Part shown: positions 1,049-30,221 of the stretch, piece after piece
How positions within the stretch are numbered: position 1 is the first letter of the stretch
Layout: each line of letters starts with the position of its first letter
Assembly: GCF_000003605.2 (NCBI RefSeq)
Contig: NW_003108232.1
Coordinates: 1 to 31,641 of the forward strand
DNA from: Saccoglossus kowalevskii
Taxonomy: Eukaryota; Hemichordata; Enteropneusta; Harrimaniidae
Direction of reading: 5' to 3'
Length of the DNA: 31,641 nucleotides
The notes under the pieces: generated by a model
Database searches by the model: none
Told to the model about the DNA's origin: nothing
Seen by the model: the letters and a program-made list of their open reading frames with translations, nothing else
Made by a program: the position numbers and the translations under genes

Positions 1049-3029
1049 TTTTGCCCAGTGGACTAGAGGGTTTTACCCAGTAGACTAGAGGGTTTTACCC
1101 AGTAGACGAGAGGATTTTACCCAGTAGACGAGAGGATTTTACCCAGTAGACCAGAGGGTTTTACCCAGCGGACTAGAGGGTTTCATCCAGTGGCCTAGAG
1201 AGTTTTACCCAGTGGACTAGAGGGTTTTACCCAGTGGACTAGAGGGTGTTACCCCGTGGACTAGAGAGTTTTACCCAGTAGACCAGAGAGTTTTACCCAG
1301 TAGACCAGAGGGTTTTACCCAGTAGACCAGAGGGTTTTACCCAGCGGACTAGAGGGTTTTACCCAGTGGACTAGAGAGTTTTACCCAGTGGATTAGAGGG
1401 TTTAACCCAGTAGACTAGAGAGTTTTAACCAGTGGACTAGAGGGTTTTACCCAGTGGACTTGAGGGTTTTACCCAGTAGACCAGAGGGTTTTACCCAGTA
1501 GACCAGAGGATTTTACCCAGCGGACTAGAGAGTTTTACCCAGTGGACTAGAGGGTTTCATCCAGTGGACTAGAGGGTTTCTACCAGTGGACTAGAAAGTT
1601 TTACCCAGTGGACTAGAGGGTTTTACCCAGTGGACTAGAGGGTTTCATCCAGTGGACTAGAAGGTTTTACCCAGTGGACTAGGGGGTTTCATCTCATGGA
1701 CTAGACGGTTTTACTCAGTGGACTAGAGAGTTTTACCCAGTAGACCAGAGAGTTTTACCCAGTGGACTAGAGGGTTTCATCCAGTGGCCTAGAGAGTTTT
1801 ACCCAGTGGACTAGAGGGTTTTACCCAGTGGACTAGAGGGTGTTACCCCGTGGACTAGAGAGTTTTACCCAGTAGACCAGAGAGTTTTACCCAGTAGACC
1901 AGAGGGTTTTACCCAGTAGACCAGAGGGTTTTACCCAGCGGACTAGAGGGTTTTACCCAGTGGACTAGAGAGTTTTACCCAGTGGATTAGAGGGTTTTAC
2001 CCAGTAGACTAGAGAGTTTTAACCAGTGGACTAGAGGGTTTTACCCAGTGGACTAGAGGGTTTTACCCAGTAGACCAGAGGGTTTTACCCAGTAGACCAG
2101 AGGATTTTACCCAGCGGACTAGAGAGTTTTACCCAGTGGACTAGAGGGTTTCATCCAGTGGACTAGAGGGTTTTACCCAGTGGACTAGAGGGTTTTACCC
2201 AGTGGACTAGAGGGTTTCATCTAGTGGACTAGAGGGTTTCATCCAGTAAGCTAGAGGGTTTTACCCAGTGGACTAGAGGGTTTTACCCAGTGGACTAGAG
2301 GATTTCATCACATGGACTAGAGGGTTTTACCCAGTGAACTAGAGGGTTTTACCCAGTGGACTAGAGGGTTTTACCCAGTGGAGTAGAGGGTTTTACCCAG
2401 TGGACTAGAGGGTTTTACCCAGTGGACTAGAGGGTTTTACCCAGTGGACTAGAGGGGTTTTACCCAGTGCACTAGAGGGTTTTACCCAGTGGAGTAAAGA
2501 GTTTTACCCAGTGGACTAAAGGGTTTTACCCAGTGGACTAGAGGGTTTCATCCAGTGGACTAGAGGGTTTCATCCAGTGGACTAGAGAGTTTTACCCAGT
2601 GGACTAGAGGGTTTTACCCAGTGGACTAGAGGGTTTTACCCAGTGGACTAGAGGGTTTTACCCAGTGGACTAGAGGGTTTTACCCAGTGGACTAGAGGGT
2701 TTTACCCAGTGGACTAGAGGGTTTCATCCAGTAGACTAGAGAGTTTAACCCAGTGAAATAGAGGGTTTTACCCAGTGGACTAGAGGGTTTTACCCAGTGG
2801 ACTAGAGGGTTTTACCCAGTGGACTAGAGGGTTTCATCTAGTGGACTAGAGGGTTTCATCTAGTGGACTAGAGAGTTTTACCCAGTGGACTAGAGGGTTT
2901 TACCCAGTAGACCAGAGGGTTTTACCCAGTAGACCAGAGGGTTTTACCCAGTAGACCAGAGGGTTTTACCCAGCGGACTAGAGGATTTTACCCAGTGGAC
3001 TAGAGGGTTTTACCCAGTGGATTAGAGAG
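1049..3029. repeat. Higher-order unit, complete but shortened (1,981 bp)
   Basis: All landmarks occur in the usual order: TTTTG 1049, GTGTTACCCC 1247, TCTCAT 1692, GTGTTACCCC 1841, AAGC 2248, TCACAT 2308, GAAATA 2755, next TTTTG 3030. Spacings are 198, 445, 149, 407, 60, 447 and 275. The first two are each one 22-bp monomer short of the usual 220 and 467. The 447 is the usual 446 plus one extra G at about 2455. The final interval is ten monomers shorter than 495. Confidence 0.85.
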
Positions 3030-5509
3030 TTTTGCCCAGTGGACTAGAGGGTTTTACCCAGTAGACTAGAGGGTTTTACCCAGTAGACGAGAGGATTTTA
3101 CCCAGTAGACTAGAGGGTTTCATCTAGTGGACTAGAGGGTTTTACCCCGTGAAGTAGAGGGTTTTACCCAGTAGACCAGAGGGTTTTACCCAGTAGACCA
3201 AATGGTTTTACCCAGTGGACTAGAGGGTTTTACCCAGTGGACTAGAGGGTTTCATCTAGTGGACTAGAGGGTTTCATCTAGTGGACTAGAGAGTTTTACC
3301 CAGTGGACTAGAGGATTTTACCCAGTAGACCAGAGGGTTTTACCCAGTAGACCAGAGGATTTTACCCAGTAGACCAGAGGGTTTTACCCAGTAGACCAGA
3401 GGGCTTTACCCAGCGGACTAGAGGGTTTTACCCAGTGGACTAGAGGGTTTTACCCAGTGGATTAGAGAGTTTTGCCCAGTGGACTAGAGGGTTTTACCCA
3501 GTAGACTAGAGGGTTTTACCCAGTATACGAGAGGATTTTACCCAGTAGACTAGAGGATTTTACCCAGTAGACCAGAGGGTTTTACCCAGCGGACTAGAGA
3601 GTTTTACCCAGTGGACTAGAGGGTTTCATCCAGTGGCCTAGAGAGTTTTACCCAGTGGACTAGAGGGTTTTACCCAGTGGACTAGAGGGTGTTACCCCGT
3701 GGACTAGAGAGTTTTACCCAGTAGACCAGAGAGTTTTACCCAGTAGACCAGAGGGTTTTACCCAGTAGACCAGAGGGTTTTACCCAGCGGACTAGAGTGT
3801 TTTACCCAGTGGACTAGAGAGTTTTAACCAGTGGATTAGAGGGTTTTACCCAGTAGACTAGAGGGTTTTACCCAGTGGACTAGAGGGTTTTACCCAGTGG
3901 ACTAGAGGGTTTTACCCAGTGGACTAGAGGGTTTTACCCAGTGCACTAGAGGGTTTTACCCAGTGGAGTAAAGGGTTTTACCCAGTGGACTAAAGGGTTT
4001 TACCCAGTGGACTAGAGGGTTTCATCCAGAGGACTAGAGGGTTTCATCCAGTGGACTAGAGAGTTTTACCCAGTGGACTAGAGGTGTTACCCCGTGACTA
4101 GAGAGTTTTACCCAGTAGACCAGAGAGTTTTACCCAGTAGACCAGAGGGTTTTACCAGTAGACCAGAGGGTTTACCAGTAGACCAGAGGGTTTTACCCAG
4201 CGGACTAGAGGGTTTTACCAGTGGACTAGAGGGTTTTACCCAGTGGACTAGAGGGTTTCATCTAGTGGACTAGAGGGTTTCATCTAGTGGACTAGAGAGT
4301 TTTACCCAGTGGACTAGAGGGTTTTACCCAGTAGACCAGAGGGTTTTACCCAGTAGACCAGAGGGTTTTACCCAGCGGACTAGAGGATTTTACCCAGTGG
4401 ACTAGAGGGTTTTACCCAGTGGATTAGAGAGTTTTGCCCAGTGGACTAGAGGGTTTTACCCAGTAGACCAGAAGGTTTTACCCAGCGGACTAGAGGGTTT
4501 TACCCAGTGGACTAGAGAGTTTTACCCAGTGGATTAGAGGGTTTTACCCAGTAGACTAGAGAGTTTTAACCAGCGGACTAGAGAGTTTTACCCAGTGGAC
4601 TAGAGGGTTTCATCCAGTGGACTAGAGGGTTTCATCCAGTGGACTAGAGGGTTTCATCCAGTGGACTAGAGAGTTTTACCCAGTGGACTAGAGGGTTTTA
4701 CCCAGTGGACTAGAGGGTTTCATCCAGTGGACTAGAAGGTTTTACCCAGTGGACTAGGGGGTTTCATCTCATGGACTAGACGGTTTTACTCAGTGGACTA
4801 GAGAGTTTTACCCAGTAGACCAGAGAGTTTTACCCAGTGGACTAGAGGGTTTCATCCAGTGGCCTAGAGAGTTTTACCCAGTGGACTAGAGGGTTTTACC
4901 CAGTGGACTAGAGGGTGTTACCCCGTGGACTAGAGAGTTTTACCCAGTAGACCAGAGAGTTTTACCCAGTAGACCAGAGGGTTTTACCCAGTAGACCAGA
5001 GGGTTTTACCCAGCGGACTAGAGGGTTTTACCCAGTGGACTAGAGAGTTTTACCCAGTGGACTAGAGGGTTTTACCCAGTGGACTAGAGGGTTTTACCCA
5101 GTGGACTAGAGGGTTTCATCTAGTGGACTAGAGAGTTTTACCCAGTGGACTAGAGAGTTTTACCCAGTGGACTAGAGGGTTTTACCCAGTGGACGAGAGG
5201 GTTTTACCCAGTGAACTAGAGGGTTTTACCCAGTGGACTAGACGGTTTTACCCAGTGGACTAGAGGGTTTTACCCAGTGGACTAGAGGGTTTTACCCAGT
5301 GGACTAGAGGGTTTCATCTAGTGGACTAGAGAGTTTTACCCAGTGGACTAGAGGGTTTTACCCAGTAGACCAGAGGGTTTTACCCAGTAGACCAGAGGGT
5401 TTTACCCAGTAGACCAGAGGGTTTTACCCAGTAGACCAGAAGGCTTTACCCAGCGGACTAGAGGGTTTTACCCAGTGGACTAGAGGGTTTTACCCAGTGG
5501 ATTAGAGAG
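3030..5509. repeat. Scrambled stretch with partial units
   Basis: Landmarks are TTTTG 3030, 3470 and 4432; GTGTT 3690, 4085 and 4916; TCTCAT 4767. The 3470 to 3690 interval is the usual 220 bp and 4767 to 4916 the usual 149 bp, but AAGC, TCACAT and GAAATA are missing. A stretch like that after TCACAT (GGAGTAAAG near 3966) jumps at about 4085 straight into a GTGTTACCCC module, inside a homopolymer-contraction patch. Two TTTTG modules 440 bp (20 monomers) apart at 3030 and 3470 suggest a local duplication. Confidence 0.75.
4076..4225. other. Homopolymer-contraction patch at a module junction
   Basis: At least five single-base losses fall within 150 bp: GAGGTGTT for GAGGGTGTT, CGTGAC for CGTGGAC, TTTTACCAG for TTTTACCCAG (more than once) and GTTTACCAG. 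Neighbouring monomers are intact. The patch coincides with an abrupt switch from a TCACAT-type module to a GTGTT module. It looks like a consensus error at an assembly join rather than natural decay. Confidence 0.7.
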
Positions 5510-6549
5510 TTTTGCCCAGTGGACTAGAGGGTTTTACCCAGTAGACTAGAGGGTTTTACCCAGTAGACGAGAGGATTTTACCCAGTAGACGAGAGGATTT
5601 TACCCAGTAGACCAGAGGGTTTTACCCAGCGGACTAGAGGGTTTTACCCAGTGGACTAGAGAGTTTTACCCAGTGGACTAGAGGGTTTTACCCAGTGGAC
5701 TAGAGGGTTTTACCCAGTGGACTAGAGAGTTTTACCCAGTAGATCTAGAGAGTTTTACCCAGTAGACCAGAGGGTTTTACCCAGTAGACCAGAGGGTTTT
5801 ACCCAGTAGACCAGAGGGTTTTACCCAGTAGACCAGAGGGTTTTACCCAGTAGACCAGAGGGTTTTACCCAGTGGACTAGAGGGTTTTACCCAGTGGACT
5901 AGAGGGTTTTACCCAGTGGATTAGAGAGTTTTACCCAGTGGACTAGAGGGTTTTACCCAGTAGACCAGAGGGTTTTACCCAGTGGACTAGAGAGTTTTAC
6001 CCAGTGGACTAGAGGGTTTCATCCAGTAGCCTAGAGAGTTTTACCCAGTGGACTAGAGGGTTTTACCCAGTGGACTAGAGGGTGTTACCCCGTGGACTAG
6101 AGAGTTTTACCCAGTAGACCAGAGAGTTTTACCCAGTAGACCAGAGGGTTTTACCCAGTAGACCAGAGGGTTTTACCCAGCGGACTAGAGGGTTTTACCC
6201 AGTGGACTAGAGAGTTTTACCCAGTGGATTAGAGGGTTTAACCCAGTAGACTAGAGAGTTTTAACCAGTGGACTAGAGGGTTTTACCCAGTGGACTTGAG
6301 GGTTTTACCCAGTAGACCAGAGGGTTTTACCCAGTAGACCAGAGGATTTTACCCAGCGGACTAGAGAGTTTTACCCAGTGGACTAGAGGGTTTCATCCAG
6401 TGGACTAGAGGGTTTCATCCAGTGGACTAGAGGGTTTCATCCAGTGGACTAGACAGTTTTACCCAGTGGACTAGAGGGTTTTACCCAGTGGACTAGAGGG
6501 TTTCATCCAGTGGACTAGAAGGTTTTACCCAGTGGACTAGGGGGTTTCA

Positions 6550-6708
6550 TCTCATGGACTAGACGGTTTTACTCAGTGGACTAGAGAGTTTTACCCAGTA
6601 GACCAGAGAGTTTTACCCAGTGGACTAGAGGGTTTCATCCAGTGGCCTAGAGAGTTTTACCCAGTGGACTAGAGGGTTTTACCCAGTGGACTAGAGGGTG
6701 TTACCCCG
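6550..6708. repeat. Landmark module: TCTCAT to GTGTTACCCC, 149 bp (reference copy)
   Basis: A GGGGGTTTCATCTCAT monomer is followed by a GACGG monomer with TTTTACTCAG, then a GGCCTAG monomer, then GGGTGTTACCCCGTGG. TCTCAT starts at 1692, 4767, 6550, 10092, 11764, 15000, 16812, 18352, 20619, 21675, 22643, 25239, 28837 and 30179 (14 copies). In ten the distance to GTGTTACCCC is exactly 149 bp. At 18352 it is 171 (one more monomer), and at 25239 about 126 (one fewer, changed core). At 21675 and 30179 the module is cut by a junction. Confidence 0.88.
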
Positions 6709-7105
6709 TGGACTAGAGAGTTTTACCCAGTAGACCAGAGAGTTTTACCCAGTAGACCAGAGGGTTTTACCCAGTAGACCAGAGGGTTTTACCCAGCGGA
6801 CTAGAGGGTTTTACCCAGTGGACTAGAGAGTTTTACCCAGTGGATTAGAGGGTTTTACCCAGTAGACTAGAGAGTTTTAACCAGTGGACTAGAGGGTTTT
6901 ACCCAGTAGACCAGAGGGTTTTACCCAGTAGACCAGAGGGTTTTACCCAGTAGACCAGAGGATTTTACCCAGCGGACTAGAGAGTTTTACCCAGTGGACT
7001 AGAGGGTTTCATCCAGTGGACTAGAGGGTTTTACCCAGTGGACTAGAGGGTTTTACCCAGTGGACTAGAGGGTTTCATCTAGTGGACTAGAGGGTTTCAT
7101 CCAGT

Positions 7106-7171
7106 AAGCTAGAGGGTTTTACCCAGTGGACTAGAGGGTTTTACCCAGTGGACTAGAGGATTTCATCACAT
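7106..7171. repeat. Landmark module: AAGC to TCACAT, 60 bp (reference copy)
   Basis: The CCAGTAAGCTAGAG monomer and the following TTTCATCACATGG monomer occur together at 2248/2308, 7106/7166, 17368/17428, 18952/19012, 21175/21235, 23199/23259, 25769/25829 and 29393/29453. All eight pairs are exactly 60 bp apart. I saw AAGCTAG, and therefore AGCT, nowhere else. TCACAT also occurs without AAGC at 13413, 27193 and 30222. Confidence 0.9.
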
Positions 7172-7617
7172 GGACTAGAGGGTTTTACCCAGTGAACTAG
7201 AGGGTTTTACCCAGTGGACTAGAGGGTTTTACCCAGTGGAGTAGAGGGTTTTACCCAGTGGACTAGAGGGTTTTACCCAGTGGACTAGAGGGTTTTACCC
7301 AGTGGACTAGAGGGTTTTACCCAGTGCACTAGAGGGTTTTACCCAGTGGAGTAAAGAGTTTTACCCAGTGGACTAAAGGGTTTTACCCAGTGGACTAGAG
7401 GGTTTCATCCAGTGGACTAGAGGGTTTCATCCAGTGGACTAGAGAGTTTTACCCAGTGGACTAGAGGGTTTTACCCAGTGGACTAGAGGGTTTTACCCAG
7501 TGGACTAGAGGGTTTTACCCAGTGGACTAGAGGGTTTTACCCAGTGGACTAGAGGGTTTTACCCAGTGGACTAGAGGGTTTCATCCAGTAGACTAGAGAG
7601 TTTAACCCAGTGAAATA
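7166..7617. repeat. Landmark module: TCACAT to GAAATA, 446 bp (reference copy)
   Basis: The series runs TCACATGG, GAACTAG, GGAGTAG, canonical monomers, GCACTAG, GGAGTAAAG, GGACTAAAG, two TCATCC monomers, a canonical run, AGACTAGAGAG and GAAATAG. Length is 446 bp at 7166, 27193 and 29453. It is 447 at 2308 (one extra G), 468 at 23259 (one extra monomer), 405 at 13413 (two fewer monomers, three extra C) and 463 at 30222 (468 minus five single-base losses). GAAATA starts at 488, 2755, 7612, 13332, 13818, 15710, 16532, 23727, 24277, 26539, 27639, 29899, 30685 and 31300. Confidence 0.86.
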
Positions 7618-8267
7618 GAGGGTTTTACCCAGTGGACTAGAGGGTTTTACCCAGTGGACTAGAGGGTTTTACCCAGTGGACTAGAGGGTTTCATCTAGTG
7701 GACTAGAGAGTTTTACCCAGTGGACGAGAGGGTTTTACCCAGTAGACTAGAGAGTTTTACCCAGTGGACTAGAGGGTTTTACCCAGTGGACGAGAAGGTT
7801 TTACCCAGTGAACTAGAGGGTTTTACCCAGTGGACTAGAGGGTTTTACCCAGTGGACTAGAGGGTTTTACCCAGTGGACTAGAGGGTTTTACCCAGTGGA
7901 CTAGAGGGTTTCATCTAGTGGACTAGAGGGTTTCATCTAGTGGACTAGAGAGTTTTACCCAGTGGACTAGAGGGTTTTACCCAGTAGACCAGAGGGTTTT
8001 ACCCAGTAGACCAGAGGGTTTTACCCAGTAGACCAGAGGGTTTTACCCAGCGGACTAGAGGATTTTACCCAGTGGACTAGAGGGTTTTACCCAGTGGATT
8101 AGAGAGTTTTGCCCAGTGGACTAGAGGGTTTTACCCAGTAGACTAGAGGGTTTTATGCAGTAGACGAGAGGATTTTACCCAGTAGACTAGAGGGTTTCAT
8201 CTAGTGGACTAGAGGGTTTTACCCCGTGAAGTAGAGGGTTTTACCCAGTAGACCAGAGGGTTTTACC

Positions 8268-8312
8268 CAGTAGACACAGAGGGTTTTACCCAGTAGACTA
8301 GAGGGTTCATCC
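8268..8312. other. Small indel patch
   Basis: AGACACAGAGG replaces AGACCAGAGG and GGGTTCATCC has lost one T. The patch lies just upstream of the block copied at 17526. Confidence 0.55.
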
Positions 8313-8319
8313 AGTGGAC

Positions 8320-9020
8320 TAGAGGGTTTCATCCAGTGGATTATAGGGTTTTACCCAGTGAACTAGAGGGTTTCATCCAGTGGACTAGACGGTTTTACCC
8401 AGTGGACTAGAGGGTTTTACCCAGTAGACCAGAGGGTTTTACCCAGTAGACCAGAGGGTTTTACCCAGTAGACTAGAGGGTTTCATCAAGTGGACTAGAG
8501 GGTTTCATCCAGTGGACTAGAGGGTTTCATCCAGTGGATTAGAGGTTTTTACCCAGTGGACTAGAGGGTTTTACCCAGTGGACTAGAAGGTTTTACCCAG
8601 TGGACTAGACGGTTTTACCCAGTGGACTAGACGGTTTTACCCAGTGGACTAGAGTATTTTACCCAGTAGACCAGAGGGTTTTACCCAGTGGACTAGAGAG
8701 TTTTACCCAGTGGACTAGAGGGTTTCATCCAGTGGCCTACAGAGTTTTACCCAGTGGACTAGAGGGTTTTACCCAGTGGACTAGAGGGTGTTACCCCGTG
8801 GACTAGAGAGTTTTACCCAGTAGACCAGAGAGTTTTACCCAGTAGACCAGAGGGTTTTACCCAGTAGACCAGAGGGTTTTACCCAGCGGACTAGAGGGTT
8901 TTACCCAGTGGACTAGAGAGTTTTACCCAGTGGATTAGAGGGTTTTACCCAGTAGACTAGAGAGTTTTACCCAGTGGACTAGAGGGTTTTACCCAGTGGA
9001 CTTGAGGGTTTTACCCAGTA
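8320..9020. repeat. Duplicated block, partner at 17526-18226
   Basis: At offset 9,206 the two copies share several monomers seen nowhere else: TCATCAAG, GATTAGAGGTTTTTACCC, two consecutive GACGG monomers, GAGTATTTT and GGCCTACAGAG. Differences noticed include TTTTACCC against TTTTACAC (near 8571 and 17777) and GAGGGTGTT against GAAGGTGTT. The shared rare monomers make common descent clear. Confidence 0.82.
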
Positions 9021-11114
9021 GACTAGAGAGTTTTACCCAGTGGACTAGAGGGTTTTACCCAGTGGACGAGAAGGTTTTACCCAGTGAACTAGAGGGTTTT
9101 ACCCAGTGGACTAGAGGGTTTTACCCAGTGGACTAGAGGGTTTTACCCAGTGGACTAGAGGGTTTTACCCAGTGGACTAGAGGGTTTCATCTAGTGGACT
9201 AGAGGGTTTCATCTAGTGGACTAGAGAGTTTTACCCAGTGGACTAGAGGGTTTTACCCAGTAGACCAGAGGGTTTTACCCAGTAGACCAGAGGGTTTTAC
9301 CCAGTAGACGAGAGGGTTTTACCCAGTGGACGAGAAGGTTTTACCCAGTGAACTAGAGGGTTTTACCCAGTGGACTAGAGGGTTTTACCCAGTGGACTAG
9401 AGGGTTTTACCCAGTGGACTAGAGGGTTTTACCCAGTGGACTAGAGGGTTTCATCTAGTGGACTAGAGGGTTTCATCTAGTGGACTAGAGGGTTTCATCT
9501 AGTGGACTAGAGAGTTTTACCCAGTGGACTAGAGGGTTTTACCCAGTAGACCAGAGGGTTTTACCCAGTAGACCAGAGGGTTTTACCCAGTAGACCAGAG
9601 GGTTTTACCCAGCGGACTAGAGGATTTTACCCAGTGGACTAGAGGGTTTTACCCAGTGGATTAGAGAGTTTTGCCCAGTGGACTAGAGGGTTTTACCCAG
9701 TAGACCAGAAGGTTTTACCCAGCGGACTAGAGGGTTTTACCCAGTGGACTAGAGAGTTTTACCCAGTGGATTAGAGGGTTTTACCCAGTAGACTAGAGAG
9801 TTTAAACCAGTGGACTAGAGGGTTTTACCCAGTGGACTTGAGGGTTTTACCCAGTAGACCAGAGGGTTTTACCCAGTAGACCAGAGGATTTTACCCAGCG
9901 GACTAGAGAGTTTTACCCAGTGGACTAGAGGGTTTCATCCAGTGGACTAGAGGGTTTCATCCAGTGGACTAGAGGGTTTCATCCAGTGGACTAGAGAGTT
10001 TTACCCAGTGGACTAGAGGGTTTTACCCAGTGGACTAGAGGGTTTCATCCAGTGGACTAGAAGGTTTTACCCAGTGGACTAGGGGGTTTCATCTCATGGA
10101 CTAGACGGTTTTACTCAGTGGACTAGAGAGTTTTACCCAGTAGACCAGAGAGTTTTACCCAGTGGACTAGAGGGTTTCATCCAGTGGCCTAGAGAGTTTT
10201 ACCCAGTGGACTAGAGGGTTTTACCCAGTGGACTAGAGGGTGTTACCCCGTGGACTAGAGAGTTTTACCCAGTAGACCAGAGAGTTTTACCCAGTAGACC
10301 AGAGGGTTTTACCCAGTAGACCAGAGGGTTTTACCCAGCGGACTAGAGGGTTTTACCCAGTGGACTAGAGAGTTTTACCCAGTGGACTAGAGGGTTTTAC
10401 CCAGTGGACTAGAGGGTTTTACCCAGTGGACTAGAGGGTTTCATCTAGTGGACTAGAGAGTTTTACCCAGTGGACTAGAGAGTTTTACCCAGTGGACGAG
10501 AGGGTTTTACCCAGTAGACTAGAGAGTTTTACCCAGTGGACTAGAGGGTTTTACCCAGTGGACGAGAGGGTTTTACCCAGTGAACTAGAGGGTTTTACCC
10601 AGTGGACTAGACGGTTTTACCCAGTGGACTAGAGGGTTTTACCCAGTGGACTAGAGGGTTTTACCCAGTGGACTAGAGGGTTTCATCTAGTGGACTAGAG
10701 AGTTTTACCCAGTGGACTAGAGGGTTTTACCCAGTAGACCAGAGGGTTTTACCCAGTAGACCAGAGGGTTTTACCCAGTAGACCAGAGGGTTTTACCCAG
10801 TAGACCAGAGGGTTTTACCCAGTAGACCAGAAGGCTTTACCCAGCGGACTAGAGGGTTTTACCCAGTGGACTAGAGGGTTTTACCCAGTGGATTAGAGAG
10901 TTTTGCCCAGTGGACTAGAGGGTTTCACCCAGTAGACTAGAGGGTTTTACCCAGTAGACAAGAGGATTTTACCCAGTAGACTAGAGGATTTTACCCAGTA
11001 GACCAGAGGGTTTTACCCAGCGGACTAGAGAGTTTTACCCAGTGGACTAGAGGGTTTCATCCAGTGGCCTAGAGAGTTTTACCCAGTGGACTAGAGGGTT
11101 TTACCCAGTGGACT

Positions 11115-19930: not shown

Positions 19931-21977
19931 TTTTGCCCAGTGGACTAGAGGGTTTTACCCAGTAGACTAGAGGGTTTTACCCAGTAGACGAGAGGATTTT
20001 ACCCAGTAGACTAGAGGATTTTACCCAGTAGATCAGAGGGTTTTACCCAGCGGACTAGAGAGTTTTACCCAGTGGACTAGAGGGTTTCATCCAGTGGCCT
20101 AGAGAGTTTTACCCAGTGGACTAGAGGGTTTTACCCAGTGGACTAGAGGGTGTTACCCCGTGGACTAGAGAGTTTTACCCAGTAGACCAGAGAGTTTTAC
20201 CCAGTAGACCAGAGGGTTTTACCCAGTAGACCACAGGGTTTTACCCAGCGGACTAGAGGGTTTTACCCAGTGGACTAGAGAGTTTTACCCAGTGGATTAG
20301 AGGGTTTAACCCAGTAGACTAGAGAGTTTTAACCAGTGGACTAGAGGGTTTTACCCAGTGGACTTGAGGGTTTTACCCAGTAGACCAGAGGGTTTTACCC
20401 AGTAGACCAGAGGATTTTACCCAGCGGACTAGAGAGTTTTACCCAGTGGACTAGAGGGTTTCATCCAGTGGACTAGAGGGTTTCATCCAGTGGACTAGAG
20501 GGTTTCATCCCAGTGGACTAGAGAGTTTTACCCAGTGGACTAGAGGGTTTTACCCAGTGGACTAGAGGGTTTCATCCAGTGGACTAGAAGGTTTTACCCA
20601 GTGGACTAGGGGGTTTCATCTCATGGCCTAGACGGTTTTACTCAGTGGACTAGAGAGTTTTACCCAGTAGACCAGAGAGTTTTACCCAGTGGACTAGAGG
20701 GTTTCATCCAGTGGCCTAGAGACTTTTACCCAGTGGACTAGAGGGTTTTACCCAGTGGACTAGAGGGTGTTACCCCGTGGACTAGAGAGTTTTACCCAGT
20801 AGACCAGAGAGTTTTACCCAGTAGACCAGAGGGTTTTACCCAGTAGACCAGAGGGTTTTACCTAGCGGACTAGAGGGTTTTACCCAGTGGACTAGAGAGT
20901 TTTACCTAGTGGATTAGAGGGTTTTACCCAGTAGACTAGAGAGTTTTAACCAGTGGACTAGAGGGTTTTACCCAGTGGACTTGAGGGTTTTACCCAGTAG
21001 ACCAGAGGGTTTTACCCAGTAGACCAGAGGATTTTACCCAGCGGACTAGAGAGTTTTACCCAGTGGACTAGAGGGTTTCATCCAGTGGACTAGAGGGTTT
21101 TACCCAGTGGACTAGAGGGTTTTACCCAGTGGACTAGAGGGTTTCATCTAGTGGACTAGAGGGTTTCATCCAGTAAGCTAGAGGGTTTTACCCAGTGGAC
21201 TAGAGGGTTTTACCCAGTGGACTAGAGGATTTCATCACATGGACTAGAGGGTTTTACCCAGTGAACTAGAGGGTTTTACCCAGTGGACTAGAGGGTTTTA
21301 CCCAGTGGAGTAGAGGGTTTTACCCAGTGGACTAGAGGGTTTTACCCAGTGGACTAGAGGGTTTTACCCAGTGGACTAGAGGGTTTTACCCAGTGCACTA
21401 GAGGGTTTTACCCAGTGGAGTAAAGAGTTTTACCCAGTGGACTAAAGGGTTTTACCCAGTGGACTAGAGGGTTTCATCCAGTGGACTAGAGGGTTTCATC
21501 CAGTGGACTAGAGGGTTTTACCCAGTGGACTAGAGGGTTTTACCCAGTGGACTAGAGGGTTTTACCCAGTGGACTAGAGGGTTTTACCCAGTGGACTAGA
21601 GGGTTTTACCCAGTGGACTAGAGGGTTTCATCCAGTGGACTAGAAGGTTTTACCCAGTGGACTAGGGGGTTTCATCTCATGGACTAGACGGTTTTACTCA
21701 GTGGACTAGAGAGTTTTACCCAGTAGACCAGAGAGTTTTACCCAGTGGACTAGAGGGTTTCATCCAGTGGCCTAGAGAGTTTTACCCAGTGGACTAGAGG
21801 GTTTTACCCAGTAGACCAGAGGGTTTTACCCAGTAGACCAGAGGGTTTTACCCAGTAGACCAGAGGGTTTTACCCAGTAGACCAGAGGGTTTTACCCAGT
21901 AGACCAGAAGGCTTTACCCAGCGGACTAGAGGGTTTTACCCAGTGGACTAGAGGGTTTTACCCAGTGGATTAGAGAG
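19931..21977. repeat. Higher-order unit truncated after TCACAT
   Basis: TTTTG 19931, GTGTT 20151 (+220), TCTCAT 20619 (+468), GTGTT 20768 (+149), AAGC 21175 (+407) and TCACAT 21235 (+60) are canonical. The extra base in 468 is one added C at about 20510. Instead of reaching GAAATA, the next module switches at about 21620 to another TCTCAT block (21675). That block also breaks off at about 21810, where the GTGTT expected at 21824 is replaced by an AGACCAG run leading to TTTTG 21978. Two junctions are therefore visible within 200 bp. Confidence 0.8.
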
Positions 21978-22207
21978 TTTTGCCCAGTGGACTAGAGGGT
22001 TTCACCCAGTAGACTAGAGGGTTTTACCCAGTAGACGAGAGGATTTTACCCAGTAGACTAGAGGATTTTACCCAGTAGACCAGAGGGTTTTACCCAGCGG
22101 ACTAGAGAGTTTTACCCAGTGGACTAGAGGGTTTCATCCAGTGGCCTAGAGAGTTTTACCCAGTGGACTAGAGGGTTTTACCCAGTGGACTAGAGGGTGT
22201 TACCCCG
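21978..22207. repeat. Landmark module: TTTTGCCC to GTGTTACCCC, 220 bp (reference copy)
   Basis: A GGATTAGAGAGTTTTGCCC monomer leads through GACGAG, AGAGGATTTT, AGACCAG, AGCGG and GGCCTAG monomers to GTGTTACCCC. The distance is 220 bp (ten monomers) at 3470, 10901, 14313, 19931 and 21978; 198 at 1049; 242 at 24530. Other TTTTG sites, at 697, 3030, 4432, 5510, 8107, 9669, 16183 and 26990, lack a GTGTT at this spacing. Confidence 0.85.
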
Positions 22208-24529
22208 TGGACTAGAGAGTTTTACCCAGTAGACCAGAGAGTTTTACCCAGTAGACCAGAGGGTTTTACCCAGTAGACCAGAGGGTTTTACCCAGCGGAC
22301 TAGAGGGTTTTACCCAGTGGACTAGAGAGTTTTACCCAGTGGATTAGAGGGTTTAACCCAGTAGACTAGAGAGTTTTAACCAGTGGACTAGAGGGTTTTA
22401 CCCAGTAGACCAGAGGGTTTTACCCAGTAGACCAGAGGATTTTACCCAGCGGACTAGAGAGTTTTACCCAGTGGACTAGAGGGTTTCATCCAGTGGACTA
22501 GAGGGTTTCATCCAGTGGACTAGAGGGTTTCATCCAGTGGACTAGAGAGTTTTACCCAGTGGACTAGAGGGTTTTACCCAGTGGACTAGAGGGTTTCATC
22601 CAGTGGACTAGAAGGTTTTACCCAGTGGACTAGGGGGTTTCATCTCATGGACTAGACGGTTTTACTCAGCGGACTAGAGAGTTTTACCCAGTAGACCAGA
22701 GAGTTTTACCCAGTGGACTAGAGGGTTTCATCCAGTGGCCTAGAGAGTTTTACCCAGTGGACTAGAGGGTTTTACCCAGTGGACTAGAGGGTGTTACCCC
22801 GTGGACTAGAGAGTTTTACCCAGTAGACCAGAGAGTTTTACCCAGTAGACCAGAGGGTTTTACCCAGTAGACCAGAGGGTTTTACCCAGCGGACTAGAGG
22901 GTTTTACCCAGTGGACTAGAGAGTTTTACCCAGTGGATTAGAGGGTTTTACCCAGTAGACTAGAGAGTTTTAACCAGTGGACTAGAGGGTTTTACCCAGT
23001 GGACTTGAGGGTTTTACCCAGTAGACCAGAGGGTTTTACCCAGTAGACCAGAGGATTTTACGCAGCGGACTAGAGAGTTTTACCCAGTGGACTAGAGGGT
23101 TTCATCCAGTGGACTAGAGGGTTTTACCCAGTGGACTAGAGGGTTTTACCCAGTGGACTAGAGGGTTTCATCTAGTGGACTAGAGGGTTTCATCCAGTAA
23201 GCTAGAGGGTTTTACCCAGTGGACTAGAGGGTTTTACCCAGTGGACTAGAGGATTTCATCACATGGACTAGAGGGTTTTACCCAGTGAACTAGAGGGTTT
23301 TACCCAGTGAACTTGAGGGTGTTACCCCGTGGAGTAGAGGGTTTTACCCAGTGGACTAGAGGGTTTTACCCAGTGGACTAGAGGGTTTTACCCAGTGGAC
23401 TAGAGGGTTTTACCCAGTGGACTAGAGGGTTTTACCCAGTGCACTAGAGGGTTTTACCCAGTGGAGTAAAGAGTTTTACCCAGAGGACTAAAGGGTTTTA
23501 CCCAGTGGACTAGAGGGTTTCATCCAGTGGACTAGAGGGTTTCATCCAGTGGACTAGAGAGTTTTACCCAGTGGACTAGAGGGTTTTACCCAGTGGACTA
23601 GAGGGTTTTACCCAGTGGACTAGAGGGTTTTACCCAGTGGACTAGAGGGTTTTACCCAGTGGACTAGAGGGTTTTACCCAGTGGACTAGAGGGTTTCATC
23701 CAGTAGACTAGAGAGTTTAACCCAGTGAAATAGAGGGTTTTACCCAGTGGACTAGAGGGTTTTACCCAGTGGACTAGAGGGTTTTACCCAGTGGACTAGA
23801 GGGTTTTACCCAGTGGACTAGAGGGTTTCATCTAGTGGACTAGAGAGTTTTACCCAGTGGACTAGAGAGTTTTACCCAGTGGACGAGAGGGTTTTACCCA
23901 GTAGACTAGAGAGTTTTACCCAGTGGACTAGAGGGTTTTACCCAGTGGACGAGAAGGTTTTACCCAGTGAACTAGAGGGTTTTACCCAGTGGACTAGAGG
24001 GTTTTACCCAGTAGACTAGAGAGTTTTACCCAGTGGAGTAAAGGGTTTTACCCAGTGGACTAGAGGGTTTTACCCAGTGGACTAGATAGTTTCATCCAGT
24101 GGACTAGAGGGTTTCATCCAGTGGACTAGAGAGTTTTACCCAGTGGACGAGAGGGTTTTACCCAGTAGACTAGAGAGTTTTACCCAGTGGACTAGAGGGT
24201 TTTACCCAGTGGACGAGAGGGTTTTACCCAGTGGACTAGAGGGTTTTACCCAGTAGACTAGAGAGTTTTACCCAGTGAAATAGAGGGTTTTACCCAGTGG
24301 ACTAGAGGGTTTTACCCAGTGGACTAGAGGGTTTCACCTAGTGGACTAGAGAGTTTTACCCAGTGGACTAGAGGGTTTTACCCAGTAGACCAGAGGGTTT
24401 TACCCAGTAGACCAGAGGGTTTTACCCAGTAGACCAGAGGGTTTTACCCAGTAGACCAGAGGGCTTTACCCAGCGGACTAGAGGGTTTTACCCAGTGGAC
24501 TAGAGGGTTTTACCCAGTGGATTAGAGAG
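21978..24529. repeat. Higher-order unit, complete (2,552 bp)
   Basis: TTTTG 21978, GTGTT 22198 (+220), TCTCAT 22643 (+445, one monomer short), GTGTT 22792 (+149), AAGC 23199 (+407), TCACAT 23259 (+60), GAAATA 23727 (+468, one monomer long), a second GAAATA at 24277, then TTTTG 24530. The total is exactly 116 monomers. A hybrid monomer at about 23320-23340 joins a GAACTTG start to a GTGTTACCCC core; a close relative is seen at about 30270. Confidence 0.85.
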
Positions 24530-26989
24530 TTTTGCCCAGTGGACTAGAGGGTTTTACCCAGTAGACTAGAGGGTTTTACCCAGTAGACGAGAGGATTTTA
24601 CCCAGTAGACTAGAGGATTTTACCCAGTAGACCAGAGGGTTTTACCCAGCGGACCAGAGGGTTTTACCCAGCGGACTAGAGAGTTTTACCCAGTGGACTA
24701 GAGGGTTTCATCCAGTGGCCTAGAGAGTTTTACCCAGTGGACTAGAGGGTTTTACCCAGTGGACTAGAGGGTGTTACCCCGTGGACTAGAGAGTTTTACC
24801 CAGTAGACCAGAGAGTTTTACCCAGCAGACCAGAGGGTTTTACCCAGTAGACCAGAAGGTTTTACCCAGCGGACTAGAGGGTTTTACCCAGTGGACTAGA
24901 GAGTTTTACCCAGTGGATTAGAGGGTTTTACCCAGTAGACTAGAGAGTTTTAACCAGTGGACTAGAGGGTTTTACCCAGTGGACTTGAGGGTTTTACCCA
25001 GTAGACCAGAGGGTTTTACCCAGTAGACCAGAGGATTTTACCCAGCGGACTAGAGAGTTTTACCCAGTGGACTAGAGGGTTTCATCCAGTGGACTAGAGG
25101 GTTTCATCCAGTGGACTAGAGGGTTTCATCCAGTGGACTAGAGAGTTTTACCCAGTGGACTAGAGGGTTTTACCCAGTGGACTAGAGGGTTTCATCCAGT
25201 GGACTAGAAGGTTTAACCCAGTGGACTAGGGGGTTTCATCTCATGGACTAGACGGTTTTACTCAGTGGACTAGAGAGTTTTACCCAGTAGACCAGAGAGT
25301 TTTACCCAGTGGACTAGAGGGTTTCATCCAGTGGACTAGAGAGTTTACCCAGTGGACTAGAGGGTTTTACCCCGTGGACTAGAGAGTTTTACCCAGTGGA
25401 CTAGAGAGTTTTACCAGTAGACCAGAGAGTTTTACCAGTAGACCAGAGGGTTTTACCCAGTAGACCAGAGGGTTTTACCCAGCGGACTAGAGGGTTTTAC
25501 CCAGTGGACTAGAGAGTTTTACCCAGTAGATTAGAGGGTTTTACCCAGTAGACTAGAGAGTTTTACCCAGTGGACTAGAGGGTTTTACCCAGTGGACTTG
25601 AGGGTTTTACCCAGTGGACTAGAGGGTTTTACCCAGTGAACTAGAGGGTTTTACCCAGTGAACTAGAGGGTTTTACCAGTGGACTAGAGGGTTTTACCCA
25701 GTGGACTAGAGGGTTTTACCCAGTGGACTAGAGGGTTTCATCTAGTGGACTAGAGGGTTTCATCCAGTAAGCTAGAGGGTTTTACCCAGTGGACTAGAGG
25801 GTTTTACCCAGTGGACTAGAGGGTTTCATCACATGGACTAGAGGGTTTTACCCAGTGAACTAGAGGGTTTTACCCAGTGGACTAGAGGGTTTTACCCAGT
25901 GGAGTAGAGGGTTTTACCCAGTGGACTAGAGGGTTTTACCCAGTGGACTAGAGGGTTTTACCCAGTGGACTAGAGGGTTTTACCCAGTGCACTAGAGGGT
26001 TTTACCCAGTGGAGTAAAGGGTTTTACCCAGTGGACTAAAGGGTTTTACCCAGTGGACTAGAGGGTTTCATCCAGTGGACTAGAGGGTTTCATCCAGTGG
26101 ACTAGAGAGTTTTACCCAGTGGACTAGAGGGTTTTACCCAGTGGACTAGAGGGTTTTACCCAGTGGACTAGAGGGTTTTACCCAGTGGAGTAGAGGGTTT
26201 TACCCAGTGGACTAGAGGGTTTTACCCAGTGGACTAGAGGGTTTTACCCAGTGGACTAGAGGGTTTTACCCAGTGGAGTAAAGGGTTTTACCCAGTGGAC
26301 TAAAGGGTTTTACCCAGTGGACGAGAGGGTTTCATCCAGTGGACTAGAGGGTTTCATCCAGTGGACTAGAGAGTTTTACCCAGTGGACTAGAGGGTTTTA
26401 CCCAGTGGACTAGAGGGTTTTACCCAGTGGACTAGAGGGTTTTACCCAGTGGACTAGAGGGTTTTACCCAGTGGACTAGAGGGTTTTACCCAGTGGACTA
26501 GAGAGTTTCATCCAGTAGACTAGAGAGTTTTACCCAGTGAAATAGAGGGTTTTACCCAGTGGACTAGAGGGTTTTACCCAGTGGACTAGAGGGTTTTACC
26601 CAGTGGACTAGAGGTTTTCATCTAGTGGACTAGAGAGTTTTACCCAGTGGACTAGAGAGTTTTACCCAGCGGACGAGAGGGTTTTACCCAGTAGACCAGA
26701 GAGTTTTACCCAGTGGACTAGAGGGTCTTACCCAGTGGACGAGAGGGTTTTACCCAGTGGACTAGAGGGTTTTACCCAGTGGACTAGAGGGTTTTACCCA
26801 GTGGACTAGAGGGTTTCATCTAGTGGACTAGAGGGTTTTACCCAGTGGACTAGATGGTTTTACCCAGTAGACCAGAGGGTTTTACCCAGTAGACCAGAGG
26901 GTTTTACCCAGTAGACCAGAGGGTTTTACCCAGCGGACTAGAGGGTTTTACCCAGTGGACTAGAGGGTTTTACCCAGTGGACTAGAGAG
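24530..26989. repeat. Higher-order unit, complete with patch (2,460 bp)
   Basis: TTTTG 24530, GTGTT 24772 (+242, one additional AGCGGACCAG monomer), TCTCAT 25239 (+467), a changed second GTGTT site at 25365 reading TTTTACCCC, AAGC 25769, TCACAT 25829 (+60), GAAATA 26539 and TTTTG 26990. The stretch 25372-26088 matches 18530-19271. The 404-bp distance 25365-25769 equals the 429 of that homologue minus one monomer and minus three single-base losses. TCACAT to GAAATA is 710 bp, twelve monomers above 446, from an internal repeat of the GGAGTAAAG stretch. Confidence 0.82.
25335..25450. other. Homopolymer-contraction patch at a module junction
   Basis: GAGTTTACCC and two TTTTACCAG monomers occur together, with a further TTTTACCAG at about 25676. 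The second GTGTTACCCC here reads TTTTACCCC. The patch sits where the array enters the block homologous to 18530-19271. Confidence 0.65.
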
Positions 26990-28369
26990 TTTTGCCCAGT
27001 GGACTAGAGGGTTTTACCCAGTAGACTAGAGGGTTTTACCCAGTAGATGAGATGGTTTTACCCAGTAGACTAGAGGGTTTCATCTAGTGGACTAGAGGGT
27101 TTTACCCCGTGAACTAGAGGGTTTTACCCAGTAGACCAGAGGGTTTTACCCAGTGGACTAGAGGGTTTTACCCAGTGAACTAGAGGGTTTCATCACATGG
27201 ACTAGAGGGTTTTACCCAGTGAACTAGAGGGTTTTACCCAGTGGACTAGAGGGTTTTACCCAGTGGAGTAGAGGGTTTTACCCAGTGGACTAGAGGGTTT
27301 TACCCAGTGGACTAGAGGGTTTTACCCAGTGGACTAGAGGGTTTTACCCAGTGGAGTAAAGGGTTTTACCCAGTGGACTAAAGGGTTTTACCCAGTAGAC
27401 GAGAGGGTTTCATCCAGTGGACTAGAGGGTTTCATCCAGTGGACTAGAGAGTTTTACCCAGTGGACTAGAGGGTTTTACCCAGTGGACTAGAGGGTTTTA
27501 CCCAGTGGACTAGAGGGTTTTACCCAGTGGACTAGAGGGTTTTACCCAGTGGACTAGAGGGTTTTACCCAGTGGACTAGAGGGTTTTACCCAGTGGACTA
27601 GAGGGTTTCATCCAGTAGACTAGAGAGTTTTACCCAGTGAAATAGAGGGTTTTACCCAGTGGACTAGAGGGTTTTACCCAGTGGACTAGAGGTTTTCATC
27701 TAGTGTACTAGAGAGTTTTACCCAGTGGACTAGAGAGTTTTACCCAGCGGACGAGAGGGTTTTACTCAGTAGACCAGAGAGTTTTACCCAGTGGACTAGA
27801 GGGTCTTACCCAGTGACGAGAGGGTTTTACCCAGTGGACTAGAGGGTTTTACCCAGTGGACTAGAGGGTTTTACCCAGTGGACTAGAGGGTTTCATCTAG
27901 TGACTAGAGAGTTTACCCAGTAGACTAGAGGGTTTACCAGTAGACAGAGGGTTTTACCCAGCGGACTAGAGAGTTTTACCAGTGGACTAGAGAGTTTTAC
28001 CCAGTGGACTAGAGGGTTTTACCCAGTGGACTAGAGGGTTTTACCCAGTGGACTAGAGGGTTTCATCCAGTGGACTAGAGAGTTTTACCCAGTGGACTAG
28101 AGAGTTTTACCCAGTGGACGAGAGGGTGTTACCCAGTGGACTAGAGAGTTTTACCCAGTGGACTAGAGAGTTTTACCCAGTAGACGAGAGGGTTTTACCC
28201 AGTGAACTAGAGGGTTTTACCCAGTGGACTAGAGGGTTTTACCCAGTGGACTAGAAGGGTTTTACCCAGCGGACTAGAGAGTTTTACCCAGTGGACTAGA
28301 GGGTTTCATCCAGTGGCCTAGAGAGTTTTACCCAGTGGACTAGAGGGTTTTACCCAGTGGACTAGAGGG
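26990..28369. repeat. Partial unit, duplicate of preceding TCACAT-GAAATA block
   Basis: TCACAT 27193 and GAAATA 27639 are the usual 446 bp apart, but no AAGC precedes them. Bases about 27330-27900 repeat 26250-26830 at an offset of 1,078 to 1,100 bp (49-50 monomers). They share the rare GAGGTTTTCATCTAG, GGGTCTTACCC and AGCGGACGAG monomers. The patch at 27810-27985 contains several single-base contractions. After it the array enters the copy of 5985-7843 at about 28272. Confidence 0.78.
27810..27985. other. Homopolymer-contraction patch
   Basis: Losses include GTGACGAG (GG to G), GTGACTAG, GAGTTTACCC, GGGTTTACCAG, AGACAGAGG (CC to C) and TTTTACCAG. The intact version of the same series is present at about 26720-26900, so the ancestral bases are known. 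Confidence 0.68.
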
Positions 28370-30130
28370 TGTTACCCCGTGGACTAGAGAGTTTTACCCA
28401 GTAGACCAGAGAGTTTTACCCAGTAGACCAGAGGGTTTTACCCAGTAGACCAGAGGGTTTTACCCAGCGGACTAGAGGGTTTTACCCAGTGGACTAGAGA
28501 GTTTTACCCAGTGGATTAGAGGGTTTAACCCAGTAGACTAGAGAGTTTTAACCAGTGGACTAGAGGGTTTTACCCAGTGGACTTGAGGGTTTTACCCAGT
28601 AGACCAGAGGGTTTTACCCAGTAGACCAGAGGATTTTACCCAGCGGACTAGAGAGTTTTACCCAGTGGACTAGAGGGTTTCATCCAGTGGACTAGAGGGT
28701 TTCATCCAGTGGACTAGAGGGTTTCATCCAGTGGACTAGAGAGTTTTACCCAGTGGACTAGAGGGTTTTACCCAGTGGACTAGAGGGTTTCATCCAGTGG
28801 ACTAGAAGGTTTTACCCAGTGGACTAGGGGGTTTCATCTCATGGACTAGACGGTTTTACTCAGCGGACTAGAGAGTTTTACCCAGTAGACCAGAGAGTTT
28901 TACCCAGTGGACTAGAGGGTTTCATCCAGTGGCCTAGAGAGTTTTACCCAGTGGACTAGAGGGTTTTACCCAGTGGACTAGAGGGTGTTACCCCGTGGAC
29001 TAGAGAGTTTTACCCAGTAGACCAGAGAGTTTTACCCAGTAGACCAGAGGGTTTTACCCAGTAGACCAGAGGGTTTTACCCAGCGGACTAGAGGGTTTTA
29101 CCCAGTGGACTAGAGAGTTTTACCCAGTGGATTAGAGGGTTTTACCCAGTAGACTAGAGAGTTTTAACCAGTGGACTAGAGGGTTTTACCCAGTAGACCA
29201 GAGGGTTTTACCCAGTAGACCAGAGGGTTTTACCCAGTAGACCAGAGGATTTTACCCAGCGGACTAGAGAGTTTTACCCAGTGGACTAGAGGGTTTCATC
29301 CAGTGGACTAGAGGGTTTTACCCAGTGGACTAGAGGGTTTTACCCAGTGGACTAGAGGGTTTCATCTAGTGGACTAGAGGGTTTCATCCAGTAAGCTAGA
29401 GGGTTTTACCCAGTGGACTAGAGGGTTTTACCCAGTGGACTAGAGGATTTCATCACATGGACTAGAGGGTTTTACCCAGTGAACTAGAGGGTTTTACCCA
29501 GTGGACTAGAGGGTTTTACCCAGTGGAGTAGAGGGTTTTACCCAGTGGACTAGAGGGTTTTACCCAGTGGACTAGAGGGTTTTACCCAGTGGACTAGAGG
29601 GTTTTACCCAGTGCACTAGAGGGTTTTACCCAGTGGAGTAAAGAGTTTTACCCAGTGGACTAAAGGGTTTTACCCAGTGGACTAGAGGGTTTCATCCAGT
29701 GGACTAGAGGGTTTCATCCAGTGGACTAGAGAGTTTTACCCAGTGGACTAGAGGGTTTTACCCAGTGGACTAGAGGGTTTTACCCAGTGGACTAGAGGGT
29801 TTTACCCAGTGGACTAGAGGGTTTTACCCAGTGGACTAGAGGGTTTTACCCAGTGGACTAGAGGGTTTCATCCAGTAGACTAGAGAGTTTAACCCAGTGA
29901 AATAGAGGGTTTTACCCAGTGGACTAGAGGGTTTTACCCAGTGGACTAGAGGGTTTTACCCAGTGGACTAGAGGGTTTCATCTAGTGGACTAGAGAGTTT
30001 TACCCAGTGGACGAGAGGGTTTTACCCAGTAGACTAGAGAGTTTTACCCAGTGGACTAGAGGGTTTTACCCAGTGGACGAGAAGGTTTTACCCAGTGAAC
30101 TAGAGGGTTTTACCCAGTGGACTAGAGGGT
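28272..30130. repeat. Long duplicated block, partner at 5985-7843
   Basis: This is the second copy of the block described at 5985. Its left edge follows a monomer with one inserted A (about 28255). Its right edge switches from TTTTACCC to TTTCATCC at about 30130, where it joins the junction shared with 16740. Confidence 0.85.
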
Positions 30131-30221
30131 TTCATCCAGTGGACTAGAAGGTTTTACCCAGTGGACTAGGGGGTTTCATCTCATGGACTAGACGGTTTTA
30201 CTCAGTGGACTAGAGGATTTA
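28370..30221. repeat. Higher-order unit, nearly complete
   Basis: GTGTT 28370, TCTCAT 28837 (+467), GTGTT 28986 (+149), AAGC 29393 (+407), TCACAT 29453 (+60) and GAAATA 29899 (+446) are all at the usual distances. The stretch up to about 30130 is the partner of 5985-7843. It then follows the same junction as 16500-16850 (offset 13,367) into TCTCAT 30179. The module expected after that is cut at about 30207, where a TCACAT monomer begins within a contraction patch. Confidence 0.84.

What the first reader, a model, noticed from the sequence alone, without database searches (positions are those of the whole stretch)
1049..30221. About 102-monomer (2,244 bp) higher-order repeat built from a 22-bp satellite
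Seven rare monomer landmarks recur in one order. Their usual spacings (220, 467, 149, 407, 60, 446, 495) sum to 2,244 bp, exactly 102 x 22. Four runs carry the whole order (from 1049, 5510, 21978 and 24530), and a fifth, from 28370, carries most of it. Higher-order repeats are well known for alpha satellite (about 171-bp monomers), but one of roughly a hundred very short monomers with such regular spacing is unusual. It implies that amplification acts on kilobase units rather than single monomers. I do not recognise this satellite.
Basis: partly seen in the sequence, partly recalled or inferred. Interest (0 to 1): 0.75.

Follow-up and report, generated by a model that had tools for sequence, protein, structure and literature searches.

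The report
Scrambled kilobase repeats of 22-bp satellite
A 31.6-kb piece of an animal genome is nothing but a 22-letter sequence repeated about 1,440 times, and within it blocks of roughly 100 repeats (about 2.3 kb) have been copied as larger units and then shuffled; this looks like a new satellite sequence but a known kind of architecture.

Summary
The window is one whole contig, all of it a 22-bp tandem array (about 1,440 monomers, 150 types). Rare monomer types recur in one cyclic order (43 of 74 landmark steps; 12 expected from shuffled monomers, 28 from shuffled 25-monomer blocks). A composed 104-monomer cycle (2,288 bp) describes the array better than the real stretches of 20-360 monomers that I tried.

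The claimed regularity is wrong. Unit lengths run from 1,981 to 2,597 bp and none is 2,244; lags of 96-100 monomers are depleted. It is a mosaic. 'Exactly 102 x 22' is forced by register.

Likeliest mechanism: in-register unequal exchange or conversion moving blocks of up to about 2 kb, plus single-monomer slippage. Short-monomer satellites with kilobase units are known (cattle 23-bp SATIII; human HSat2, DYZ1). The sequence was found nowhere else in the readable assembly, the collections searched or the paper library. Five of seven other arrays sampled in this assembly also show kilobase recurrences. Ordinary in kind, apparently new in sequence.

The parts
1..31641 (+). 22-bp tandem array, consensus TGGACTAGAGGGTTTTACCCAG, filling the whole contig C273; no inverted monomers; no flanks in the assembly
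   Evidence: TRF: one row 3-31638, 1439.5 copies; contig length 31641; 0 reverse-strand copies of the consensus at up to 3 mismatches
1037..3017 (+). higher-order unit copy 1 (90 monomers, 1981 bp)
5498..8094 (+). higher-order unit copy 2 (118 monomers, 2597 bp); its first ~24 monomers are rearranged
8095..19918 (+). mosaic stretch: shorter or longer cycles and fragments of the unit (W-W gaps 1562, 1232, 3412, 1870, 3748 bp)
21966..24517 (+). higher-order unit copy 4 (116 monomers, 2552 bp), directly after copy 3
24518..26977 (+). higher-order unit copy 5 (112 monomers, 2460 bp), directly after copy 4
28270..30117 (+). higher-order unit copy 6, partial (84 monomers, 1848 bp), starts inside the unit; one uninterrupted 78-monomer block 28270-29985
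6578..7845 (+). 1,268-bp segment repeated without a single difference at 28865-30132, 22,287 bp away

Best explanation
This is a minisatellite/satellite array with 22-bp monomers. Secondary amplification has produced a higher-order unit of about 104 monomers (2,288 bp), which was later broken up. Shown: the array, the monomer types, the cyclic order, the near-identical long copies at large distances, and the largely preserved 22-bp register. Inferred: (1) an early 22-bp array diversified by point mutation; (2) unequal sister-chromatid exchange, gene conversion or break-induced copying between misaligned but in-register positions duplicated segments of up to kilobase length, first inside the unit (a near-perfect 17-monomer block occurs twice, 28 monomers apart), then the whole ~2.3-kb unit; (3) further exchanges at arbitrary in-register points deleted, inserted and transposed blocks, leaving a mosaic; (4) slippage still changes runs of identical monomers by one or more. 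No coding role is proposed: 22 is not a multiple of three and the longest closed reading frame is 59 codons. Any effect on the chromosome (heterochromatin, perhaps centromeric or pericentromeric) is unproven.
For: Whole contig one 22-bp array; 1402 of 1441 cut pieces exactly 22 bp, 150 types. The 104-monomer cycle: 83% of monomers match their phase exactly, edits 1.1% of bases, 112 jumps. Description length 2860 nats against 4814 for order-free coding; data term 2547 against 7499 +/- 50 for the shuffled array and 7267 +/- 155 for the cycle with its order scrambled (20 shuffles each); a 76- or a 132-monomer version is worse (3589, 2980). Six copies at 99.1-99.9% identity over aligned monomers. 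93 of 112 block junctions have only 22-bp monomers on both sides, as homology-guided exchange predicts. Best relatives lie far away: median 8.2 kb, 1.6% within 1 kb (440-bp windows at 97%). In rough simulations, short tandem duplication (mean 5 or 15 monomers) puts 42-100% of best relatives within 60 monomers, against 0.00 observed by the same monomer-level measure; tandem duplication averaging 40 or 100 monomers gives 5-40% and long-range tract copying 0-4%. Internal duplication: 16 of 17 monomers identical.
Against: No sharp period: lag 102 alone has no excess and 96-100 is depleted. I composed the 104-monomer cycle by eye from the monomer string before refining it, so its fit is partly by construction; the scrambled-master control shows that order matters, not that 104 is the only good length. 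Of the 113 fitted blocks 59 have 6 monomers or fewer (median 6); some of these jumps will be single variant monomers, not exchanges. 27 of the 37 monomers of odd length lie next to junctions, against 10.8 expected, so some junctions are not cleanly in register, or the odd monomers themselves forced jumps. Random 104-monomer stretches also align at 98.5-99.8% identity, so identity alone does not discriminate; the number of aligned monomers mostly does (75-98 against 52-81, which overlap). The simulations had two replicates per setting and far higher monomer diversity than the real array; the observed share of adjacent identical monomers (0.171) is approached only by the shortest-duplication model (0.136-0.159), not by the long-tract models (0.000-0.026).
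Confidence: 0.8

Rival explanations
1. The kilobase pattern is an assembly artefact: reads from a much larger array were collapsed or chained wrongly, creating false order and false long identical copies.
For: The contig is array from end to end with no flanks; an exact 1,268-bp repeat; 4,830 contigs in 572 Mb; odd-length monomers cluster at junctions.
Against: All 15 pairs among the six copies differ at 0.1-0.9% of aligned bases and in length, and the same cyclic order recurs in six places; chaining errors would not make one order. Other arrays of this assembly show comparable recurrences, though the same assembler could err there too.
Confidence: 0.12
2. No higher-order unit: only monomer-scale slippage and short duplications, with recurrences by chance.
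For: Adjacent identical monomers are in excess (17.1% against 9.1% expected); run lengths vary between copies; lag 102 itself is flat.
Against: 43 of 74 ordered landmark steps, reached in 0 of 2000 block shuffles; exact repeats of 402-1,268 bp at distances of 1.7-27 kb; best relatives not within 60 monomers.
Confidence: 0.02
3. Amplification went through extrachromosomal circles of about 2.3 kb, by rolling-circle copying and reintegration.
For: A kilobase unit and near-identical copies at long distance would fit.
Against: Rolling-circle copying predicts regular head-to-tail units of one length; only three consecutive units are seen, and they differ in length (2047, 2552, 2460 bp). No direct evidence.
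Confidence: 0.1
4. The array is a functional centromeric satellite whose order is kept by selection, as for alpha-satellite higher-order repeats.
For: Cattle SATIII, of 23-bp monomers, has the highest CENP-A signal of the seven bovine satellites (PMC12663436). CpG is strongly depleted (186 against 1758 expected), which would fit methylated heterochromatin but may be chance of the consensus.
Against: All copies within 3 mismatches in the readable part of the held assembly lie in this one contig; no chromosome position; many other short-monomer arrays in the same assembly.
Confidence: 0.1

Closest known systems
Cattle satellites SATIII and SATV (SATIII recalled as the bovine 1.706 satellite, unit about 2,350 bp of 23-bp prototypes; [quoted passage not shown]
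   Same: Diverse monomers of almost the same length (23 bp; PMC12663436, section 9 read); a unit of about 100 monomers at about 2.3 kb (unit length recalled, not read here); patchwork of monomer variants (from the title).
   Different: Sequence relation not tested (no Repbase or Dfam at hand). SATIII is one of the two most abundant centromeric satellites of cattle; this one is a single unplaced contig in this assembly.
Human HSat2 (1.77-kb unit) and DYZ1/HSat3 (3.6-kb unit)
   Same: Kilobase higher-order units made of a very short ancestral monomer (passages of PMC4022460); many subfamilies there lack a clean ring-like unit.
   Different: Ancestral monomer is the pentamer CATTC; arrays are megabases long.
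Cervid satellite I
   Same: Short (31-bp) subrepeats organised into 0.8-1-kb monomers (passages of PMC7288315).
   Different: Unit less than half as long (20-21 subrepeats in the rows seen); most common centromeric satellite of deer.
Alpha-satellite higher-order repeats (from general knowledge)
   Same: Multi-monomer unit copied as a block, units about 99% alike.
   Different: Monomers of 171 bp rather than 22; those arrays largely keep a constant period, this one does not.

Membership tests
Higher-order repeat (general definition) | Divergent monomers inside a unit, with units far more alike than monomers | tested here: met
   150 monomer types; six unit copies at 99.1-99.9% over aligned monomers; neighbouring monomers 88% alike on average (lag 22). 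Monomer-level alignment with free gaps raises the unit figure.
Higher-order repeat (general definition) | Constant period, head-to-tail units | tested here: not met
   Unit lengths 1981-2597 bp; only three consecutive units (19919-26977); 113 blocks on the fitted cycle
Minisatellite / short-monomer satellite | Tandem array of monomers of roughly 10-60 bp, kilobases or longer | tested here: met
   22 bp, 1439.5 copies, 31.6 kb
Cattle SATIII/SATV | Sequence homology to the 23-bp cattle prototype | not tested
Human HSat2/HSat3 | CATTC-derived pentamers | tested here: not met
   The doubled 22-bp consensus contains no CATTC on either strand
Alpha satellite | 171-bp monomers | tested here: not met
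   Period 22
Centromeric satellite | CENP-A occupancy or centromere position | not testable with these tools
   Unplaced contig without flanks

The most novel reading that the evidence does not exclude
In this genome, formation of kilobase higher-order mosaics may be a general property of short-monomer arrays whatever their sequence. Different-looking arrays of 33-, 34-, 36-, 43- and 46-bp monomers on other contigs also show rare-monomer recurrences between about 1.75 and 4.25 kb. Exchange length would then be set by the recombination or replication machinery, not by the satellite, and such assemblies could be used to measure it.
Probability: 0.2. Interest if true: 0.5.

Novelty: new member of a known kind. 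Interest (0 to 1): 0.3.

Why it matters
It gives a sequenced example of a short-monomer satellite caught between monomeric and higher-order states, with a readable string of about 1,440 monomers and exact long copies whose distances constrain the exchange mechanism. It also shows that an impression of a regular unit, built from modal landmark spacings, can hide a mosaic. The type of structure has been known since the 1970s-80s (recalled; titles of Pech 1979 and Nakahori 1986 seen only in reference lists).

Tried and rejected
A regular 2,244-bp period: rejected by the gap list and the lag counts. A sharp best unit length from real stretches: none among 20 lengths with starts every 14 monomers; cost falls steeply to about 100 monomers and then slowly to a shallow minimum at 180-220; only the composed 104-monomer cycle beats these. 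Hairpin-forming monomers: four short stretches of 44-66 nt folded as single-stranded DNA are not clearly more stable than shuffles (z -0.20, -0.10, -1.21, 1.10). A coding role: 13 reading frames of 40 codons or more, longest 59. Phage, plasmid and viral-contig relatives: none (first 8,000 bases against phages; first 4,000 against plasmids, both with BLAST's low-complexity filter on, which can hide simple repeats; an exact 42-base pattern in viral contigs). The metagenome and genome contig collections and the E. coli genomes were not scanned. Literature: four 15-16-base words of the monomer in no paper; phrases for a 22-bp monomer, satellite, minisatellite or tandem repeat gave 9 papers, none on this satellite by title; an earlier phrase search gave 0. 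Two searches aimed at the bovine 1.706 satellite did not give its unit length (0 papers; 20 papers of which 12 were listed), so that figure is recalled; a later broad search (6 papers listed) was not read further. Species: not identified. The mitochondrial contig C4830 carries COX1, COX2 and ND1 with TGA at Trp, ATA at Ile and AAA at Lys sites that I recall as conserved, so an invertebrate animal is likely; the COX2 protein matched 14 solved cytochrome c oxidase sequences, which names no species. The idea that all arrays share one unit length was not borne out: the other arrays peak at different lengths between 1.75 and 4.25 kb, and 2 of 7 show no kilobase peak by that measure.
Full report
What is in the window. 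The window is the whole of contig C273 (31,641 bp) of an unnamed 572-Mb assembly with 4,830 contigs. Tandem Repeats Finder gives one row, 3-31638, period 22, 1439.5 copies, 89% matches. Cutting it in register gives 1441 pieces, 1402 of exactly 22 bp, with 150 distinct sequences; the commonest, TGGACTAGAGGGTTTTACCCAG, occurs 350 times. No copy of the consensus lies on the other strand at up to 3 mismatches. In the held assembly the consensus has 705 matches at up to 1 mismatch and 1360 at up to 3. These equal the counts in the window alone (350+355 and 350+355+458+197), so no other readable contig carries it within that distance. Part of the assembly reads N to me (15 of 20 contig starts of 10 kb had N, 12 of them wholly), and a collapsed or unassembled larger array cannot be excluded. 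The longest closed reading frame is 59 codons.

Is there a higher-order order? Written as a string of monomer types, the array visibly repeats long phrases. I tested six landmark monomers (W, U, b, R, S, Z), chosen after seeing the string. The next landmark is the cyclic successor in 43 of 74 steps, against 12.2 in monomer shuffles, 20.7 in shuffles of blocks averaging 13 monomers and 27.7 for blocks averaging 25; 0 of 2000 shuffles reached 43 in any of them.

How long and how regular? A 104-monomer cycle, composed by eye from the string and then refined, was fitted with a jump model. 83% of monomers match their phase exactly, edits are 1.1% of bases, and 112 jumps are needed (113 blocks). 22 blocks of 20 or more monomers hold 814 of 1441 monomers, while 59 of the 113 have 6 or fewer, some of which will be variant monomers rather than exchanges. 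The longest uninterrupted block has 96 monomers (19479-21591). Total description length is 2860 nats, against 4814 for order-free coding and against 2970 for the best real stretch tried among 20 lengths from 20 to 360, starts every 14 monomers. Shuffling the array raises the data term from 2547 to 7499; scrambling the cycle raises it to 7267. Versions of 76 and 132 monomers are worse (3589, 2980). But actual units are 1981, 2597, 2047, 2552 and 2460 bp, plus one partial of 1848, and other gaps between first landmarks run from 440 to 3748. Rare-monomer pairs at 80-120 monomers are in excess (170 against 129), yet 96-100 is depleted (2 against 15.9) and lag 102 alone is flat. The phrase 'exactly 102 x 22' is a consequence of register.

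How alike are the copies? All 15 pairs of the six copies align over 75-98 monomers at 99.1-99.9% identity. Of 20 random pairs of 104-monomer stretches, 8 lay within 110 monomers of each other and were dropped; the other 12 align over 52-81 monomers at 98.5-99.8%. The aligned length, not the identity, mostly separates them. Exact repeats reach 1,268 bp (6578 and 28865). Of positions whose 440-bp window has a relative at 97% or more (53.6% of positions), the best relative lies at a median of 8.2 kb, within 1 kb in 1.6%, and at 1.8-2.7 kb in 11.7% (5.4% for random partners). Copying has therefore not been confined to neighbours.

Mechanism. 93 of 112 block junctions have only 22-bp monomers on both sides, although 27 of 37 odd-length monomers do lie near junctions (10.8 expected). 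I read this as mostly homology-guided, in-register exchange. Rough simulations (two per setting) of short tandem duplications (mean 5 or 15 monomers) place 42-100% of best relatives within 60 monomers; tandem duplication averaging 40 or 100 monomers places 5-40% there, and long-range tract copying 0-4%. The observed value is 0.00. Against this, the share of adjacent identical monomers (0.171) is approached only by the shortest-duplication model (0.136-0.159), and simulated monomer diversity was much higher than real, so this is a direction, not a fit: long-tract exchange and monomer slippage both seem needed. Inside the unit a 17-monomer block occurs twice, 28 monomers apart, with 16 of 17 monomers identical, and lag 28 is one of the strongest short lags (z 10.5): an earlier round of the same process. 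Runs of identical monomers differ by one or more between copies: slippage continues.

Context in the same genome. 40 other contig starts were fetched (20 of 10 kb; 20 of 1.5 kb); 13 read N throughout (12, one). Of the 27 readable ones, 13 are tandem array over 97% or more of the readable stretch: monomers of 21, 33, 34, 36, 41, 43, 44, 46, 48, 100 and 280 bp, and two tRNA-gene arrays. That these monomers are unrelated is judged by eye. In 9-10-kb samples of seven of the arrays, five (43, 34, 46, 36 and 33 bp) show at least one 250-bp bin between 1.75 and 4.25 kb with an excess of rare-monomer recurrences at z 2.5 or more; two (100 and 44 bp) do not (20 bins per array, not corrected, and some counts are small, e.g. 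6 against 1.7 in the 43-bp array). The 100-bp array does show base-level recurrences at 1.7 and 5.1 kb. Kilobase mosaics thus look common here. The window has 186 CpG against 1758 expected; other non-array stretches range widely (0.95 and 0.98 in two 10-kb contig starts, but 0.36 and 0.21 in two others), so I draw no firm conclusion on methylation.

Known kinds. Cattle SATIII and SATV are made of diverse 23-bp monomers (PMC12663436, section 9 and passages read). That the bovine 1.706 satellite has a unit of about 2,350 bp is recalled; [quoted passage not shown] HSat2 (1.77 kb) and DYZ1 (3.6 kb) are units of a pentamer-derived satellite (PMC4022460, passages). Cervid satellite I builds 0.8-1-kb units from 31-bp subrepeats (PMC7288315, passages). 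A Vicia faba satellite survey was read in passages only (PMC5895790) and added no closer case. The sequence appears new to what I could search; Dfam and Repbase were not available.

Verdict. Real, partly misdescribed, apparently new in sequence, known in kind. Interest 0.3.

Noticed in passing
L025 (C270), L027 (C272), L028 (C274), L032 (C267), L035+L051 (C276), L036+L052 (C277), L038+L053 (C279), L039 (C280), L040 (C500), L044+L054 (C2100), L049 (C4700): Other contigs of the same assembly are, in the readable stretch fetched, tandem arrays of different-looking monomers (43, 100, 34, 21, 46, 36, 33, 41, 280, 44, 48 bp); five of the seven examined at 9-10 kb show kilobase recurrences of rare monomers.
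   Followed up: partly
L037 (C278) 1-1500: Tandem array of tRNA-Leu genes, 157-bp unit, 8 genes called in 1,500 bp (anticodon taa in 7, caa in 1).
   Followed up: no
L045 (C2500) 1-1500: Tandem array of tRNA genes, about 262-bp unit, minus strand: 5 called tRNA-His (gtg in 4, atg in 1) and one unclear.
   Followed up: no
window 1-31641 and other array contigs: CpG is strongly depleted in several short-monomer arrays (window 186 against 1758 expected; 43-bp array 5 against 421) but not in the 46- and 280-bp arrays (1.03, 1.02); non-array stretches range from 0.21 to 1.79, so methylation of repeats is only a possibility.
   Followed up: partly
L050 (C4830): Mitochondrial contig with COX1 on the strand opposite to ND1 and COX2; TGA reads Trp, ATA sits at Ile and AAA at Lys sites, and one AGA in ND1 sits where Ser is usual (conservation from recall).
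   Followed up: partly
window, monomer positions 16 and 18: The two changes T16C and C18T go together: C16 in 219, T18 in 216 and both in 215 of 1402 monomers, pointing to one ancestral variant spread by copying.
   Followed up: partly
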